A stretch of DNA of 64,000 nt from Solirubrobacterales bacterium (GCA_025450195.1 JANWHW010000029.1:1-64000), one strand, 5' to 3'. Counted from the first letter of the stretch, positions 54,356-58,776 are shown. Notes: generated by a model not told the origin, from the sequence alone. A program made the numbers and translations.

Positions 54356-55138
54356 TCAGCGCTTCGGCCCGACGAACTCGTCGAGCCTAGCCACATCCGC
54401 CTTGCGAGATACGTAGATCGTCACCGCCGATTCTGACTTCGGGAAGGACGCTGTCCATCGTAAGTCAAGGCAATCGCATGCCGAGCAGAAGATGCTGGTG
54501 ATGTCGGTGGAGCGATTCGTAAACGCATAGCGAGGCTGTCGCCAACCACCCCGGCCGGTGCTGTAGGACCGGCAGCCGTCGGACTGAATCAACCCTCTGA
54601 GTAACTCCCTTGGATAGCGCTTGGCGAGCTCCTGCTGCCAATCCGCAAGGAAGATGGACCGCGTGTGCTTCATCCCCGGGCCGTGCTGGGGAAATAAGCA
54701 TGGCCAAGATCGCGAATAAGCGGAGACCGAGTAGCAATTGGATGGGGTGAGCAGTACATGGACTTTGTTCCCGGAGACGGTGGCTTGCATCGAAGCGACA
54801 CACTCATCGACGATCTGGGGGTACTTCATGTCTAAGAAGACGCGTAGACGATGGACGCCGCGGGGGTGGGTGGAGATGCTGCCGTCTCCCAAGTAAAGCC
54901 CCAACAGATGGGCATAGGACGGTCCGAGGCCATCGGGGCGATGCTCTGGCTGTCCGCAGGTCGAGCAGGTGGGCGGACGCGACCCATCGTCAGGCTGTGC
55001 ATGTCGAGGCAGCTTCCCGGCGTGCCAGTCTCTTACCGTCGGCAAAGGAATTCCGAGGCGTCGGGAAACGCGACGTGCTCCCAGGCCCTCCTCGTCCCGC
55101 AATCTCAACGCCGCTTCGACTGTCTCCCGGGCGTGCAT
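54356..55138 (-). CDS. Free-standing LAGLIDADG endonuclease-like protein
   Basis: 260 residues from the ATG at 55138. N-terminal helix-turn-helix (about 1-45, with GARRVSRRLGIPLPTVRDW), then a CxxC (C58, C61), then two LAGLIDADG-type motifs, LLGLYLGDG (about 78-86) and LLRGLIQSDG (about 179-188). The first keeps the catalytic Asp; the second has Asp in SDG. It is not inside an intron or intein. Starts 16 bases behind the 3' end of tRNA-Leu (55154-55237) on the same strand. Similar proteins occur in Streptomyces; role unknown. Confidence 0.75.
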   Translation of the reverse strand: MHARETVEAALRLRDEEGLGARRVSRRLGIPLPTVRDWHAGKLPRHAQPDDGSRPPTCSTCGQPEHRPDGLGPSYAHLLGLYLGDGSISTHPRGVHRLRVFLDMKYPQIVDECVASMQATVSGNKVHVLLTPSNCYSVSAYSRSWPCLFPQHGPGMKHTRSIFLADWQQELAKRYPRELLRGLIQSDGCRSYSTGRGGWRQPRYAFTNRSTDITSIFCSACDCLDLRWTASFPKSESAVTIYVSRKADVARLDEFVGPKR

Positions 55139-55153
55139 CTCAATGCCAGGAAA

Positions 55154-55237
55154 TGCGGCGAGGGGGATTCGAACCCCCACGTCCTCTCGGACACGAGCAC
55201 CTGAAGCTCGCGAGTCTGCCAGTTCCTCCACCGCCGC
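55154..55237 (-). tRNA. tRNA-Leu (CAG)
   Basis: 84 nt on the minus strand. Acceptor GCGGCGG/TCGCCGC with one G-U, loop TTCAGGT, anticodon CAG, long variable arm, T-arm with GGTTCGAATCC. 3' CCA not encoded. Confidence 0.95.
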
Positions 55238-55377
55238 GTGGGGTAGCCAATTTAGCGGTTGACCGACGTTCGAACCATTGCGCCAGAGAAGCGAACATAT
55301 GTTCGTAAGGCTAGCGTCGCCTTCGGACGGAGAGGGCAAAACCTCAGCTATTCATCCCGCTAGAATGTCGCCTCCTC

Positions 55378-55450
55378 GCCGCTATCGTCTAGGGGACTAG
55401 GACGCCGGATTCTCAGTCCGGAAACCGGGGTTCGAATCCCCGTAGCGGTA
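55378..55450 (+). tRNA. tRNA-Glu (CTC), apparent integration target
   Basis: 73 nt. Acceptor GCCGCTA/TAGCGGT, anticodon stem CCGGA/TCCGG, loop TTCTCAG, anticodon CTC, discriminator A at 55450. The 3' end (55431-55451) recurs in degraded form at 58517-58536. Confidence 0.95.
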
Positions 55451-55456
55451 CTGACG

Positions 55457-55483
55457 CGCCCGCTCTACGAGCGGGGGCGTTTT
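55457..55483 (+). terminator. Terminator after tRNA-Glu
   Basis: GCGCCCGCTC pairs with GAGCGGGGGC around TAC, with a bulge, followed by GTTTT. A second palindrome, GGCTTGTACAAGCC, lies at 55493-55506. The rest of 55507-55802 holds no gene. Confidence 0.7.
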
Positions 55484-55802
55484 GCGTTTTTTGGCTTGTA
55501 CAAGCCGTTTGTGGGCACCGAGGTGATCTGGATCCACAGGCCCCTGGTCTTCGGGATTTAATTCTTGCACCAGTCAGCCCGTGCCTGTGCACCAGAGATT
55601 GGCTCTCGATTGCGAGGCGCTCGCCTTCTTGTTTCCTAGGCCCGAATCGGGTCCAGCGAGGATGGGTCCTGCTTCAGCAAAGGACGAGCGCCGTAGCCCG
55701 CTTGCGTGAAGACTTACTGATCGATAGGTTGGCAATGGATTACTCAACATCTGTCGAGTTCCGAGCTGTTGCGGCTTCGGTGAGTCAAATGGAGGTGTCG
55801 CT

Positions 55803-56018
55803 GTGCCGGAATATTGTGTGAACAGGAATGCTCAGTCGGATAGTGGCGATCATGAGGTTCATGACCTGGCTTCGGAAAAAGGATGCCTGCCCGATCCCGA
55901 GAATCGACAGAACCTTGGAACGTTTGCGACCTGCGGAGAAGCGGTCGAAGCAGCCAAGGGGTACTACGACGATGTGAACGGGTGCTACCACTGCGCCAAC
56001 GACTGTCATACGACGTGA
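55803..56018 (+). CDS. Small Cys-rich protein
   Basis: 71 residues from a GTG at 55803 with GGAGG 9 bases upstream. Cys at residues 5, 28, 44, 61, 64 and 68, including a CxxC (CYHC), fit a zinc-binding fold. The pattern YCVNRNAQSDSGDHEVH... and NGCYHCANDCHTT resembles a recurrent small protein family of unknown role that I recall from several phyla. First gene of the islet; no clear partner. Confidence 0.65.
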   Translation: MPEYCVNRNAQSDSGDHEVHDLASEKGCLPDPENRQNLGTFATCGEAVEAAKGYYDDVNGCYHCANDCHTT

Positions 56019-56167
56019 GGTCGGTCGGGCAGCTCGCTGCGCGCCCTGAATCACTAAACCGAAGCATCGAGCTGCTTGCTGGATAGGTGACGGGTCTCTC
56101 CGGCGGAGCCTGGCTATGAGCAGGAATGTCTGCCGAGTCCGCTCGGTGGGGCGAAGCTGATCATCGC

Positions 56168-56230
56168 CCCGCGCCTCCTGGAACTCCTCGGAGAAAGGGC
56201 AAATGGTTGGTTCCAGAGTGGAGGCGCGGG
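56168..56230 (+). ncRNA. Long hairpin, possible structured RNA
   Basis: CCCGCGCCTCC and TGGAAC (56168-56184) pair with GTTCCA and GGAGGCGCGGG (to 56230), with a 4-base bulge on the right side. A second perfect hairpin, GATCGCCA/TGGCGATC, lies at 56323-56344. They sit in a 518-base gap (56019-56536) with no convincing gene, just upstream of the three-gene cassette. An RNA role is inferred only. Confidence 0.4.
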
Positions 56231-56536
56231 ACTTATCTTTACGGGGGCCACCTACTTTTCACCGCTTGGATCCGGGGCTGTTTGATTTCGGATTGTCGAC
56301 CCAAGGCAGGATTGGGTCGTTCGATCGCCAAATGTCTGGCGATCTACCAAGCGGCCAAGGCCTAAAAGAGTCCTAGGATCGAAGGTTCCCGCTGCCATGT
56401 ATCTGGCCAAGGGGTTCAAGGCACTTTGCCTGCTCTGGATGCAGCCAGATTCGGGCATCGCCGGCTTGCACATCTGGGCCCCTTTCTCTCGGGCGAGGTG
56501 GCCTACCGCTGCTAGCCGCTATAACCTCTTCGAACG

Positions 56537-57382
56537 ATGGCAGATCAGAATTCCGAAGCCACCCCTGCAGATCCCGTTTCCTTCGAGTCGCCCCCGGTCA
56601 AGCAGGTAGTTCTTGGCGTGGAATTCTCCGGCCAGGTAGCAGATGAGGCAACAATGCTGGCTGACTTTTGGCAGCAGATTCGGACCACCTATCCCGCCTT
56701 TAGTAAAGGACCGGCGATGGGTCCCATGGCGGAGAACTTTGATCTGATCTCTACCGGCCCACGTGTTCGCCTGACTGTGGTGAACGAGTCCTCGCTATAC
56801 ACATTCCTCAGCGAGGATGAGCACTGGAGGGTGCAAGTCCAACCAAATCGCTTCGTCGTCGGCTGGGCGCAAACCGATGAGGCTGGCCCCTATCCTCGCT
56901 ACCGCAAAATACGTCGCCGATTCCAAGAGCTTTACCGAATTTTTACCGATGTCATGGATACTGAAATTTTGAAGGCTCACCCTCCGTCTTGGTGCGCAAC
57001 GACATACGTGAACGAGATAGCTCATCCAAAGTCCAAGGATCCCTTCCATGGGCCTCTAGAGGACATACTGCTGCTCGTCCGCAAACCAAAGTCCAACACA
57101 CTTCCCACCGTTGAGGACACGACATATCGGCAGCGGCACCTTCTGCGGTCAAATAATGGAGAGCCATGCGGTCGCTTTTACATCAATGCCGATCCCATGT
57201 GGATAACAGAGAATCATATTCCCGGCTACAGACTTACGCTAAGGGCTGTGTCACGACCCGATGGTAAGAGCGCTGCCGCCGTTCTTCGTTGCCAGGACAA
57301 GGGTCGCGATCTAATTGTTCGCTCATTTAAGGACATCACTACTCCGGCCATGCATGAGCAGTGGGGACTACAGGAGAGCTGA
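56537..57382 (+). CDS. TIGR04255-like protein
   Basis: 281 residues. Opening SPPVKQVVLGVEFSGQ, the middle RFVVGWAQTDEAGPYPRYRKIRRRFQEL and the end match the sporadically distributed TIGR04255 family, ~250 aa, often found among defence genes; biochemical function unknown. No signal or membrane segment. The start is an ATG at 56537. Its TGA overlaps the ATG of the next gene, so it is coupled to it. Codon use is more A+T-rich than in core genes. Confidence 0.7.
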   Translation: MADQNSEATPADPVSFESPPVKQVVLGVEFSGQVADEATMLADFWQQIRTTYPAFSKGPAMGPMAENFDLISTGPRVRLTVVNESSLYTFLSEDEHWRVQVQPNRFVVGWAQTDEAGPYPRYRKIRRRFQELYRIFTDVMDTEILKAHPPSWCATTYVNEIAHPKSKDPFHGPLEDILLLVRKPKSNTLPTVEDTTYRQRHLLRSNNGEPCGRFYINADPMWITENHIPGYRLTLRAVSRPDGKSAAAVLRCQDKGRDLIVRSFKDITTPAMHEQWGLQES

Positions 57383-57966
57383 TGCCGGCAGTGATGGAGA
57401 AAAGTGCGAACCCCGAACAGGGCTTTTATTCACCACACATCCTGACGGGTAAATTCCCGCAGAAAGCCGACGCGGAGATGCGTCCTCCTCTTTCTCCTGA
57501 TTTACCCAGGCAGGATGTTCGTGTAGTCATAGATTCTCCAAATATCAGAACTAGTCATGAATTTCCCCTAGACGAAGATTCCGAGCCCCATGAAGCAGGA
57601 ACTCATGAAGCCGACGCACCCGTTTGGCTTGGGGCAGTTATTGATCGCCTCAACGAGCTGCTTGCGTTACCCGTCAATTGGGATCAGCAAGGAGCACTTC
57701 GTATAGAGATCGCTGATCTCACCTGTGCCCTAGATACCCTGACGAGGGTCATGTATCGCGACACGCCAGCACCCACGATTGTTCCTATCCGAGGTGGCGG
57801 CTTACAACTTGAGTGGCATCGCGCTGGTTTGGATGTAGAGATAGTGGTAGGTCTGGGCGAGGACGATGGCCTCTATTTCTCCGACCCTGCGACAGGCCTG
57901 GACTGGGAAGGCCCCACTTTCGATGGCTTTACTGAGCATGGTCTAGCAATACGTCTTATCGGTTAG
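57382..57966 (+). CDS. Hypothetical protein of the TIGR04255 cassette
   Basis: 194 residues from the ATG at 57382, overlapping the previous stop (TGATG). A disordered acidic N-terminal part (about 1-85) precedes a domain with LALPVNWDQQGALRIE and PIRGGGLQLEWHRAGLDVEIVV. I recall this NWD-then-GGxQLEW pattern in small unannotated proteins that co-occur with the next gene type. Function unknown; middle gene of the cassette. Confidence 0.6.
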   Translation: MPAVMEKSANPEQGFYSPHILTGKFPQKADAEMRPPLSPDLPRQDVRVVIDSPNIRTSHEFPLDEDSEPHEAGTHEADAPVWLGAVIDRLNELLALPVNWDQQGALRIEIADLTCALDTLTRVMYRDTPAPTIVPIRGGGLQLEWHRAGLDVEIVVGLGEDDGLYFSDPATGLDWEGPTFDGFTEHGLAIRLIG

Positions 57967-57983
57967 GCAAGCTTTACGGCCTT

Positions 57984-58412
57984 GTGAGCATTGGGATTGA
58001 TGAGCCGGTCGCCCTGGACACGAGGCTATTCAGGCGGATCTCCCCTCAGTTCGACGTAGTTCGAGACGAGGATCGCGATTGTTTTCGGCTATCTAGTGCC
58101 GCCTTCAAGACCAAAAATCAAAGATTGTCCGTTGTGGTTGAGGATCAGCTTCAAGAGGAAGGCCGACAACCCCTGGATGCCCTCACTCGTTATCCGGACG
58201 ATTTCCTAGTAGCGATTACTGCTGATCTAGCAGTCAAGCAAAATCATGAGATTGAGCGGACTCCCGAAGACAACGAGCCCGCCCACGCTGAGATCGTGGG
58301 GAAGGTCACGGGGGGCAAAGCACGCGAGATGTGCCGAGAGGCGAGGTGGATCAAAGCGCCCGAGGGACTGTGTTCAGAGGAAGCCGCAAAGGTTGAGACT
58401 GGTGGAGAGTGA
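57984..58412 (+). CDS. Hypothetical protein of the TIGR04255 cassette
   Basis: 142 residues from a GTG at 57984, 17 bases after the previous stop. LFRRISPQFDVVRDEDRD followed by FRLSSAAFK, then PAHAEIVGKVTGGKA, is a pattern I recognise from a family of unknown function. A pairing with NWD-type proteins is recalled, not verified here. No membrane or signal segment. Last gene of the cassette. Confidence 0.6.
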   Translation: MSIGIDEPVALDTRLFRRISPQFDVVRDEDRDCFRLSSAAFKTKNQRLSVVVEDQLQEEGRQPLDALTRYPDDFLVAITADLAVKQNHEIERTPEDNEPAHAEIVGKVTGGKAREMCREARWIKAPEGLCSEEAAKVETGGE

Positions 58413-58516
58413 TCTACCTGGACGCTCAGAACTATTTGCGTCCTAAGTGTCCTATGCAGAGACTGGCTGCGGTTGATACGCAATCTTGATTAGGCGTCTA
58501 TAAAAACGCCGGCCGA

Positions 58517-58536
58517 TTCGAATTCCGTAGCGGTAC
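58517..58536 (+). repeat. Degraded copy of tRNA-Glu 3' end
   Basis: TTCGAATTCCGTAGCGGTAC against the tRNA TTCGAATCCCCGTAGCGGTAC: one base deleted and one changed. The last 12 bases are identical. The stretch 58413-58776 around it has no gene other than this and the terminator. Confidence 0.55.
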
Positions 58537-58553
58537 CAACTTCTCGAAGTACG

Positions 58554-58582
58554 AAGCCCCGTCTCTGCAAGAGACGGGGCTT
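58554..58582 (+). terminator. Strong terminator after tRNA-Glu 3' copy
   Basis: AAGCCCCGTCTC (58554-58565) pairs perfectly with GAGACGGGGCTT (58571-58582) and continues into TTTT. It lies 17 bases after the tRNA copy, where the original tRNA terminator would be expected. Confidence 0.85.
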
Positions 58583-58776
58583 TTGCTTTCCCAGCGAGTT
58601 CACGGGTGGCTTGAGCCTTTGGCCGTACCTCCAGTAGTTCACCGGCCGCTAGCCTTGCCCTGGTGTCGCTTGAGGGTGAGATAACCAGTCCGGCGACACG
58701 GGACAGCGTTTGCCGACTGAGCGGACTGGCGTAAGAAGTCAGCTCATGTCGCGCGTGCGTTTGTCAAGCTGTCGGT

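What the first reader, a model, noticed from the sequence alone, without database searches (positions are those of the whole stretch)
55451..58536. Integrase-less islet at tRNA-Glu with a coupled TIGR04255 three-gene cassette
A degraded copy of the tRNA-Glu 3' end and its downstream terminator lie 3.1 kb from the intact tRNA. The enclosed A+T-richer DNA carries a TIGR04255-like gene, an NWD-type protein and an RRISP/SSAAF-type protein in one tight unit (TGATG overlap, then a 17-base gap). TIGR04255 is sporadic and often near defence genes. The conserved trio could be an uncharacterised defence or stress system; function is inference.
Basis: partly seen in the sequence, partly recalled or inferred. 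Interest (0 to 1): 0.75.

Follow-up and report, generated by a model that had tools for sequence, protein, structure and literature searches.

The report
Mobile three-gene islet beside tRNA-Glu
A small block of imported DNA beside a transfer-RNA gene carries three tightly linked genes of unknown function that travel together across distantly related bacteria, phages and plasmids, and they look like an untested anti-virus or toxin-type system whose last protein may have an NAD-using enzyme fold.

Summary
An A+T-richer 3.1-kb islet lies between intact tRNA-Glu(CTC) and a degraded copy of its 3' end (28 nt at 58509-58536). It has no integrase and carries three coupled genes: A (TIGR04255), B ('NWD/QLEWH') and C ('RRISP/SSAAF').

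A-B-C, in this order and on one strand, occurs in 28 of 40 GTDB loci retrieved with B, under at least seven phylum-level labels. It also occurs in two IMG/VR viral contigs and behind mobF on a mycobacterial plasmid. The three proteins co-diverge. It is not core: 4 of 50 family genomes have TIGR04255. A sister species carries the trio in an integrase-bearing element ending in a tRNA-Arg fragment. The tRNA-Glu site is a hotspot; one relative's islet there holds an AbiE pair.

A, B and C have no Pfam family. B is the C-terminal domain of PADLOC's untested candidate PDC-M32A, and of an HsdR in one genome; C is a distant relative of PDC-M32B. The trio is therefore a three-gene relative of PDC-M32, not a member.

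C's confident AlphaFold model most resembles KptA-type (ADP-ribosyltransferase-fold) enzymes, but weakly (best E 0.06). Best reading: a mobile abortive-infection or toxin-antitoxin-type cassette with C as effector. Function is inferred, not shown.

The parts
55378..55451 (+). intact tRNA-Glu(CTC), left boundary and integration hotspot
   Evidence: ARAGORN and Rfam; same 3' half repeated downstream of tRNA-Glu in relatives
55453..55492 (+). hairpin terminator directly after the regenerated tRNA
   Evidence: RNA fold -23.3 kcal/mol, z -3.5
55452..56536 (.). 1.1 kb between tRNA-Glu and gene A with no recognisable gene
   Evidence: ORF list; the 71-aa ORF 55803-56018 has no family hit; no sigma-70-type promoter pattern and no Rfam match
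56537..57382 (+). gene A, TIGR04255 family protein, 281 aa; divergent, trio-linked subclade
   Evidence: NCBIfam TIGR04255 E 6e-16; AF2 model pLDDT 91.5
57382..57966 (+). gene B, 194 aa; C-terminal 'NWD...GGxQLEWH' domain shared with PADLOC PDC-M32A
   Evidence: PADLOC PDC-M32A E 2e-8 over residues 86-160; alignments A4, A5, A10
57984..58412 (+). gene C, 142 aa (GTG start); family without Pfam, NCBIfam, PHROG or PADLOC model; KptA/ART-like predicted fold
   Evidence: AF2 pLDDT 93.7; Foldseek top hits KptA/Tpt1
58509..58536 (+). degraded copy of the tRNA-Glu 3' end (attR-like), right boundary
   Evidence: local alignment score 17, 1 of 200 shuffles as high
58546..58589 (+). strong hairpin terminator right of the copy, probably the original host terminator
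   Evidence: -30 kcal/mol, z -5.4

Best explanation
55452-58536 is a non-autonomous (integrase-less) islet at a tRNA-Glu integration hotspot. It carries a conserved three-gene operon that spreads with mobile elements. The most likely function is a tripartite abortive-infection or toxin-antitoxin-type immune cassette. C, with a KptA/ADP-ribosyltransferase-like fold, would be the effector, acting through NAD+ or on RNA. B, translated in overlap with A and directly ahead of C, would be the adaptor or antitoxin that holds C. A (TIGR04255, predicted two-sheet helix-grip/TBP-like scaffold) would be the sensor or chaperone-like partner that releases C on infection. Shown here: anatomy, islet boundaries, conservation and co-divergence of the trio, mobility, homology of B and C to PDC-M32 modules. 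Inferred: defence role, division of labour, enzymatic activity of C.
For: Boundaries and composition. Trio in the same order and strand in 28 of 40 GTDB loci, in two IMG/VR contigs and on a plasmid next to mobF. Gaps: A-B within 30 nt in 34/34, median -4; B-C within 30 nt in 20/24. Distance matrices of A, B and C correlate, r 0.62-0.70, p <= 0.0005. Not core: TIGR04255 in 4/50 family and 31/396 phylum genomes, C in 7/396 at E < 1e-8, every C behind a B domain. Sister species G046 has the trio behind a tyrosine integrase in an element ending in a tRNA-Arg(acg) 3' copy. B = C-terminal domain of PADLOC PDC-M32A; a C homologue matches PDC-M32B E 8e-8 beside a PDC-M32A; a B domain is fused to an HsdR. 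Hotspot neighbours include AbiEi/AbiEii between intact tRNA repeats and a RES gene. C fold: five of the top seven PDB hits are KptA/Tpt1; RNA 2'-phosphotransferases recur in BFVD.
Against: Fold hits of C are weak: best E 0.06, TM 0.43, rmsd 6 A. Profile-profile comparison of C with KptA or RES is negative, though KptA against RES, two known ART-superfamily families, is negative too, so that test lacks power. No catalytic motif could be mapped. Defence genes are not over-represented in all neighbourhoods: many of the 114 nearest genes are ordinary housekeeping genes. No toxicity or phage data exist. PDC-M32 is itself only a computational candidate.
Confidence: 0.5

Rival explanations
1. Plain addiction (toxin-antitoxin) module: C toxin, B antitoxin, A accessory. 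It stabilises mobile islets and plasmids and has no phage-sensing role.
For: Found on a plasmid behind mobF, next to integrases and at a hotspot where another islet holds an AbiE pair. In a Nitrospira locus an A-B pair is followed by a PIN/VapC-like ORF in place of C (by eye).
Against: Three obligately linked genes with a 281-aa conserved first protein are more than a usual TA pair needs. The PDC-M32 link and the HsdR fusion point to defence.
Confidence: 0.25
2. RNA-processing or repair (or counter-defence) module: C is a KptA-like enzyme acting on damaged or modified RNA ends, and A/B bind the RNA. It helps mobile elements or host survive tRNA-targeting effectors.
For: The best fold matches of C are RNA 2'-phosphotransferases. 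A has weak similarity to two-repeat TBP-like folds.
Against: No RNA ligase or 2H/macro partner was noticed next to the trio. Sequence profiles show no KptA relation. Fold similarity is weak.
Confidence: 0.1
3. Degenerate or neutral cargo: the islet is a decaying remnant and the trio has no present function in this genome.
For: The right tRNA copy is degraded, there is no integrase, and 1.1 kb next to the tRNA has no gene. A decayed trio exists in same-family genome G026.
Against: All three reading frames are intact and keep the conserved residues of their families.
Confidence: 0.12

Closest known systems
PADLOC candidate system PDC-M32 (PDC-M32A + PDC-M32B)
   Same: B is homologous to the C-terminal domain of PDC-M32A, and C is distantly related to PDC-M32B: in G318 one C homologue matches PDC-M32B at 8e-8 beside a PDC-M32A. 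Sinorhizobium prophages carry PDC-M32 (PMC12429752).
   Different: The N-terminal half of PDC-M32A is absent and a separate TIGR04255 protein stands in its place: three genes instead of two. The window's C has no PDC-M32B hit and A has no PADLOC hit.
TIGR04255 family (NCBIfam 'sporadTIGR04255')
   Same: Gene A is a member above the curated cut-off.
   Different: Belongs to a divergent, low-scoring subclade linked to B and C. Of the other phylum loci inspected, only the classical member in G393 also has B/C-like genes.
CmdTAC, tripartite ADP-ribosyltransferase defence system (PMC11618068)
   Same: Three-gene logic with a possible ART-fold effector and two partner proteins.
   Different: No sequence relation found. 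A shows no SecB-like fold match; ART activity of C is unproven.
tRNA 2'-phosphotransferase KptA/Tpt1 (ART superfamily)
   Same: Best fold matches of the C model in PDB, recurring in BFVD.
   Different: Lacks the N-terminal lobe and shows no sequence-profile match; catalytic residues not mapped.
tRNA-anchored genomic islands as in Islander (PMC4383910)
   Same: Regenerated tRNA at one end and a displaced 3' fragment at the other.
   Different: No integrase inside, and the displaced fragment is degraded.

Membership tests
TIGR04255 | score above NCBIfam cut-off (30 bits) | tested here: met
   59 bits, E 6.2e-16, profile 2-252 of 252
PADLOC PDC-M32 | full-length PDC-M32A (about 375 aa) | tested here: not met
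   B matches only M32A positions about 258-332; compare L122, matching 10-348
PADLOC PDC-M32 | PDC-M32B partner | tested here: not met
   Window C has no PADLOC hit at E <= 1; only distant C homologues in G318 and L084 match M32B
integrase-type tRNA genomic island | intact tRNA at one end | tested here: met
integrase-type tRNA genomic island | displaced tRNA 3' fragment at the other end | tested here: met
   degraded 28-nt copy, 1 of 200 shuffles as good; intact 42-45 nt copies in relatives
integrase-type tRNA genomic island | integrase gene inside the island | tested here: not met
   no integrase hit in the window; five Phage_integrase genes elsewhere in the genome, none on this contig
ADP-ribosyltransferase / KptA superfamily (gene C) | ART fold | tested here: inconclusive
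   KptA/Tpt1 are five of the top seven PDB hits, prob 0.97 but E 0.06, TM 0.43
ADP-ribosyltransferase / KptA superfamily (gene C) | catalytic residues and NAD+ use | not testable with these tools
ADP-ribosyltransferase / KptA superfamily (gene C) | sequence-profile similarity | tested here: inconclusive
   hhalign negative for KptA and RES, but also negative between KptA and RES, so no power
CmdTAC / toxin-antitoxin-chaperone | SecB-like chaperone component | tested here: not met
   no SecB among the PDB fold hits of A shown
anti-phage defence system | protection against phage | not testable with these tools
   needs a bench test

The most novel reading that the evidence does not exclude
A-B-C is an undescribed, widely distributed tripartite immune system: a TIGR04255 sensor, a modular 'QLEWH' adaptor domain that is also grafted onto HsdR and PDC-M32A, and a minimal ADP-ribosyltransferase-fold effector. 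It is carried between genomes by tRNA-targeted mobile elements, prophages and plasmids.
Probability: 0.3. Interest if true: 0.85.

Novelty: new variant of a known kind. Interest (0 to 1): 0.6.

Why it matters
TIGR04255 is a named but uncharacterised family; no paper in the searched library mentions it. Linking it to two further families without Pfam models, in one conserved operon under at least seven phylum-level labels, turns three 'hypothetical proteins' into one testable unit. The shared B domain ties together PADLOC's PDC-M32, an HsdR fusion and this trio, suggesting a reusable adaptor of bacterial immunity. The tRNA-Glu locus is a compact hotspot where defence/TA islets with intact repeats can be compared across one family.

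Tried and rejected
Core-chromosome reading: rejected, TIGR04255 in 4 of 50 family genomes. Plain chance repeat: unlikely and contradicted by intact repeats in relatives. Pfam, NCBIfam, PHROG and PDB sequence searches for B and C gave nothing significant. Profile-profile comparison of C with KptA and RES was uninformative. The fold of A gave no usable homologue: best hits AdoMetDC prozyme and TBP at TM about 0.25. An empty-site comparison failed because the right flank of the window (GNAT, Ca-binding repeat protein) is not syntenic in sister genomes. Viral scans with C (A6) and A (A7) added no further contigs. PLSDB search with window C found nothing; INPHARED search with the prophage A found nothing.

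Full report
OBSERVATION. ARAGORN and Rfam place tRNA-Glu(CTC) at 55378-55451 +. A copy of its 3' end, with one deletion, a two-base insertion and two mismatches, lies at 58509-58536. Its local alignment score of 17 was reached in 1 of 200 dinucleotide shuffles of the surrounding 8.5 kb; the best other place in the window scores 14. G+C drops to 0.53-0.56 between the two and recovers at the right-hand copy. Each end is followed by a stable hairpin and T-rich tail. The two hairpins differ in sequence, so the right one is probably the original host terminator rather than a copy. Gene A (56537-57382) is TIGR04255. A and B overlap as TGATG, and B and C are separated by 17 nt. No integrase lies in the window.

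THE SITE IS A HOTSPOT. In relatives of the same family (same hydrolase-tRNA-Leu-tRNA-Glu left flank), tRNA-Glu is followed 1.4-2.0 kb downstream by an intact 42-45-nt repeat that starts in the anticodon loop (G033, G035, G046). The G035 islet contains an AbiEi/AbiEii pair. The G033 and G046 islets contain small two-gene units that resemble RelE-type toxin-antitoxin pairs by eye, without a Pfam hit. In the same-order genome G050 a 9.7-kb element between tRNA-Glu and a 22-nt copy carries a tyrosine integrase next to the distal copy. The window's islet is the integrase-less kind. The genome has five Phage_integrase genes elsewhere, so mobilisation in trans is possible but not shown.

THE TRIO IS REAL AND TRAVELS. 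A scan of 84,980 GTDB species genomes with the B domain returned 40 loci; 28 have A, B and C in the same order and strand. Record labels are Actinomycetota, Planctomycetota, Acidobacteriota, Alphaproteobacteria, 'Deltaproteobacteria', Obscuribacter and Bacillota. Two IMG/VR contigs carry it; in one (L078) it sits between ORFs that read as tail-region genes (by eye). On a Mycobacterium paragordonae plasmid it directly follows mobF. A-B spacing is within 30 nt in 34 of 34 loci (median -4); B-C within 30 nt in 20 of 24. Pairwise distances of A, B and C correlate (r 0.62-0.70, p <= 0.0005), so they move as a unit. Searching 396 phylum genomes with the C profile gave seven strong hits. Each has a B domain upstream: six with a TIGR04255 gene, and one (G318) with a full PDC-M32A-like protein in place of A+B. 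TIGR04255 itself is present in 31 of 396 phylum genomes and 4 of 50 family genomes.

INDEPENDENT ACQUISITION IN A SISTER SPECIES. G046, recognisable in the named collection as Solirubrobacterales MohnsGC08_bin146, carries A-B-C with 46-47% identity to the window's proteins. There it lies downstream of a tyrosine integrase and of a small HTH ORF that reads as an excisionase (by eye). The element ends in a 3' copy of tRNA-Arg(acg), whose intact gene is on another contig. Two species of one genus thus hold the trio at two different tRNA sites.

WHAT THE PROTEINS ARE. None of the tested A, B and C proteins has a Pfam match. B matches the C-terminal 75-100 residues of PADLOC's PDC-M32A. A B domain is fused to the C-terminus of an HsdR in Paraoerskovia sediminicola (L119) and is doubled in one Acetobacter plasmid protein (by eye). 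C of G318 matches PDC-M32B (E 8e-8) beside its PDC-M32A. The simplest reading is that PDC-M32 and this trio share B and C modules: in PDC-M32 B is fused to another N-terminal domain, and here TIGR04255 stands in its place as a separate gene. The AF2 model of C (pLDDT 93.7, 32 sequences) finds KptA/Tpt1 tRNA 2'-phosphotransferases as five of its top seven PDB matches (prob 0.97, but E 0.06, TM 0.43), and RNA 2'-phosphotransferases again among BFVD hits. Sequence-profile comparison with KptA and RES was negative, but it also failed between KptA and RES, which belong to one superfamily, so it decides nothing. A's model (pLDDT 91.5) has no convincing homologue; weak hits are to two-repeat AdoMetDC and TBP-like folds.

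MECHANISM (INFERRED). By position, coupling and fold, C is the best candidate effector (an ADP-ribosyltransferase-like enzyme using NAD+), B its adaptor or antitoxin, and A the sensor or chaperone-like partner. The logic resembles CmdTAC, where a chaperone senses a capsid protein and an ART toxin is released (PMC11618068), without homology to it. Supporting context: type I restriction specificity subunits among the nearest neighbours, and, read by eye from translations, an HsdR fragment, an AbiEi-like gene, VapC- and HEPN-like ORFs. Against over-interpretation: many neighbours are housekeeping genes, and nothing has been tested at the bench.

VERDICT. A confirmed islet with a genuinely conserved, uncharacterised three-gene mobile cassette, related to but distinct from the PDC-M32 candidate. 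A defence or TA-type role is likely; the enzymatic mechanism is a specific but weakly supported hypothesis.

Noticed in passing
window 54356-55339 (-): HTH + LAGLIDADG_3-like protein between the conserved hydrolase gene and tRNA-Leu, overlapping tRNA-Leu(cag). At the syntenic place in G046 only the last ~21 residues match and none is seen in G033, G035 and G036, but a 38%-identical copy lies in G025. Possibly a homing-type insertion at the other tRNA of the pair.
   Followed up: partly
L119:3782-7324: B domain fused to the C-terminus of a type I restriction HsdR in Paraoerskovia sediminicola.
   Followed up: partly
L089:1368-3430: A and B followed by a PIN/VapC-like ORF instead of C, with an extended C-terminus of B that could be an antitoxin (Nitrospira MAG; by eye).
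   Followed up: no
L073:545-2466 (G260): A of the trio subclade, followed after an unassigned stretch by a DUF7689 protein instead of B and C.
   Followed up: no
L026:5131 and 5983; G046:C139:1814 and 4326: Serial partial copies of tRNA-Arg(acg) in the sister species: apparently tandem islets at a second tRNA hotspot.
   Followed up: partly
L029:1278-2899 (G035): AbiEi/AbiEii pair cleanly enclosed by 43-nt tRNA-Glu repeats, a minimal integrase-less defence islet.
   Followed up: partly
L135:979-2431 (G026): Decayed A-B-C copy with frame breaks in a same-family genome.
   Followed up: no
L195:5034-6339: Acetobacter persici plasmid protein with two tandem B domains, followed by a gene annotated as SspB (ClpXP adaptor).
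   Followed up: no
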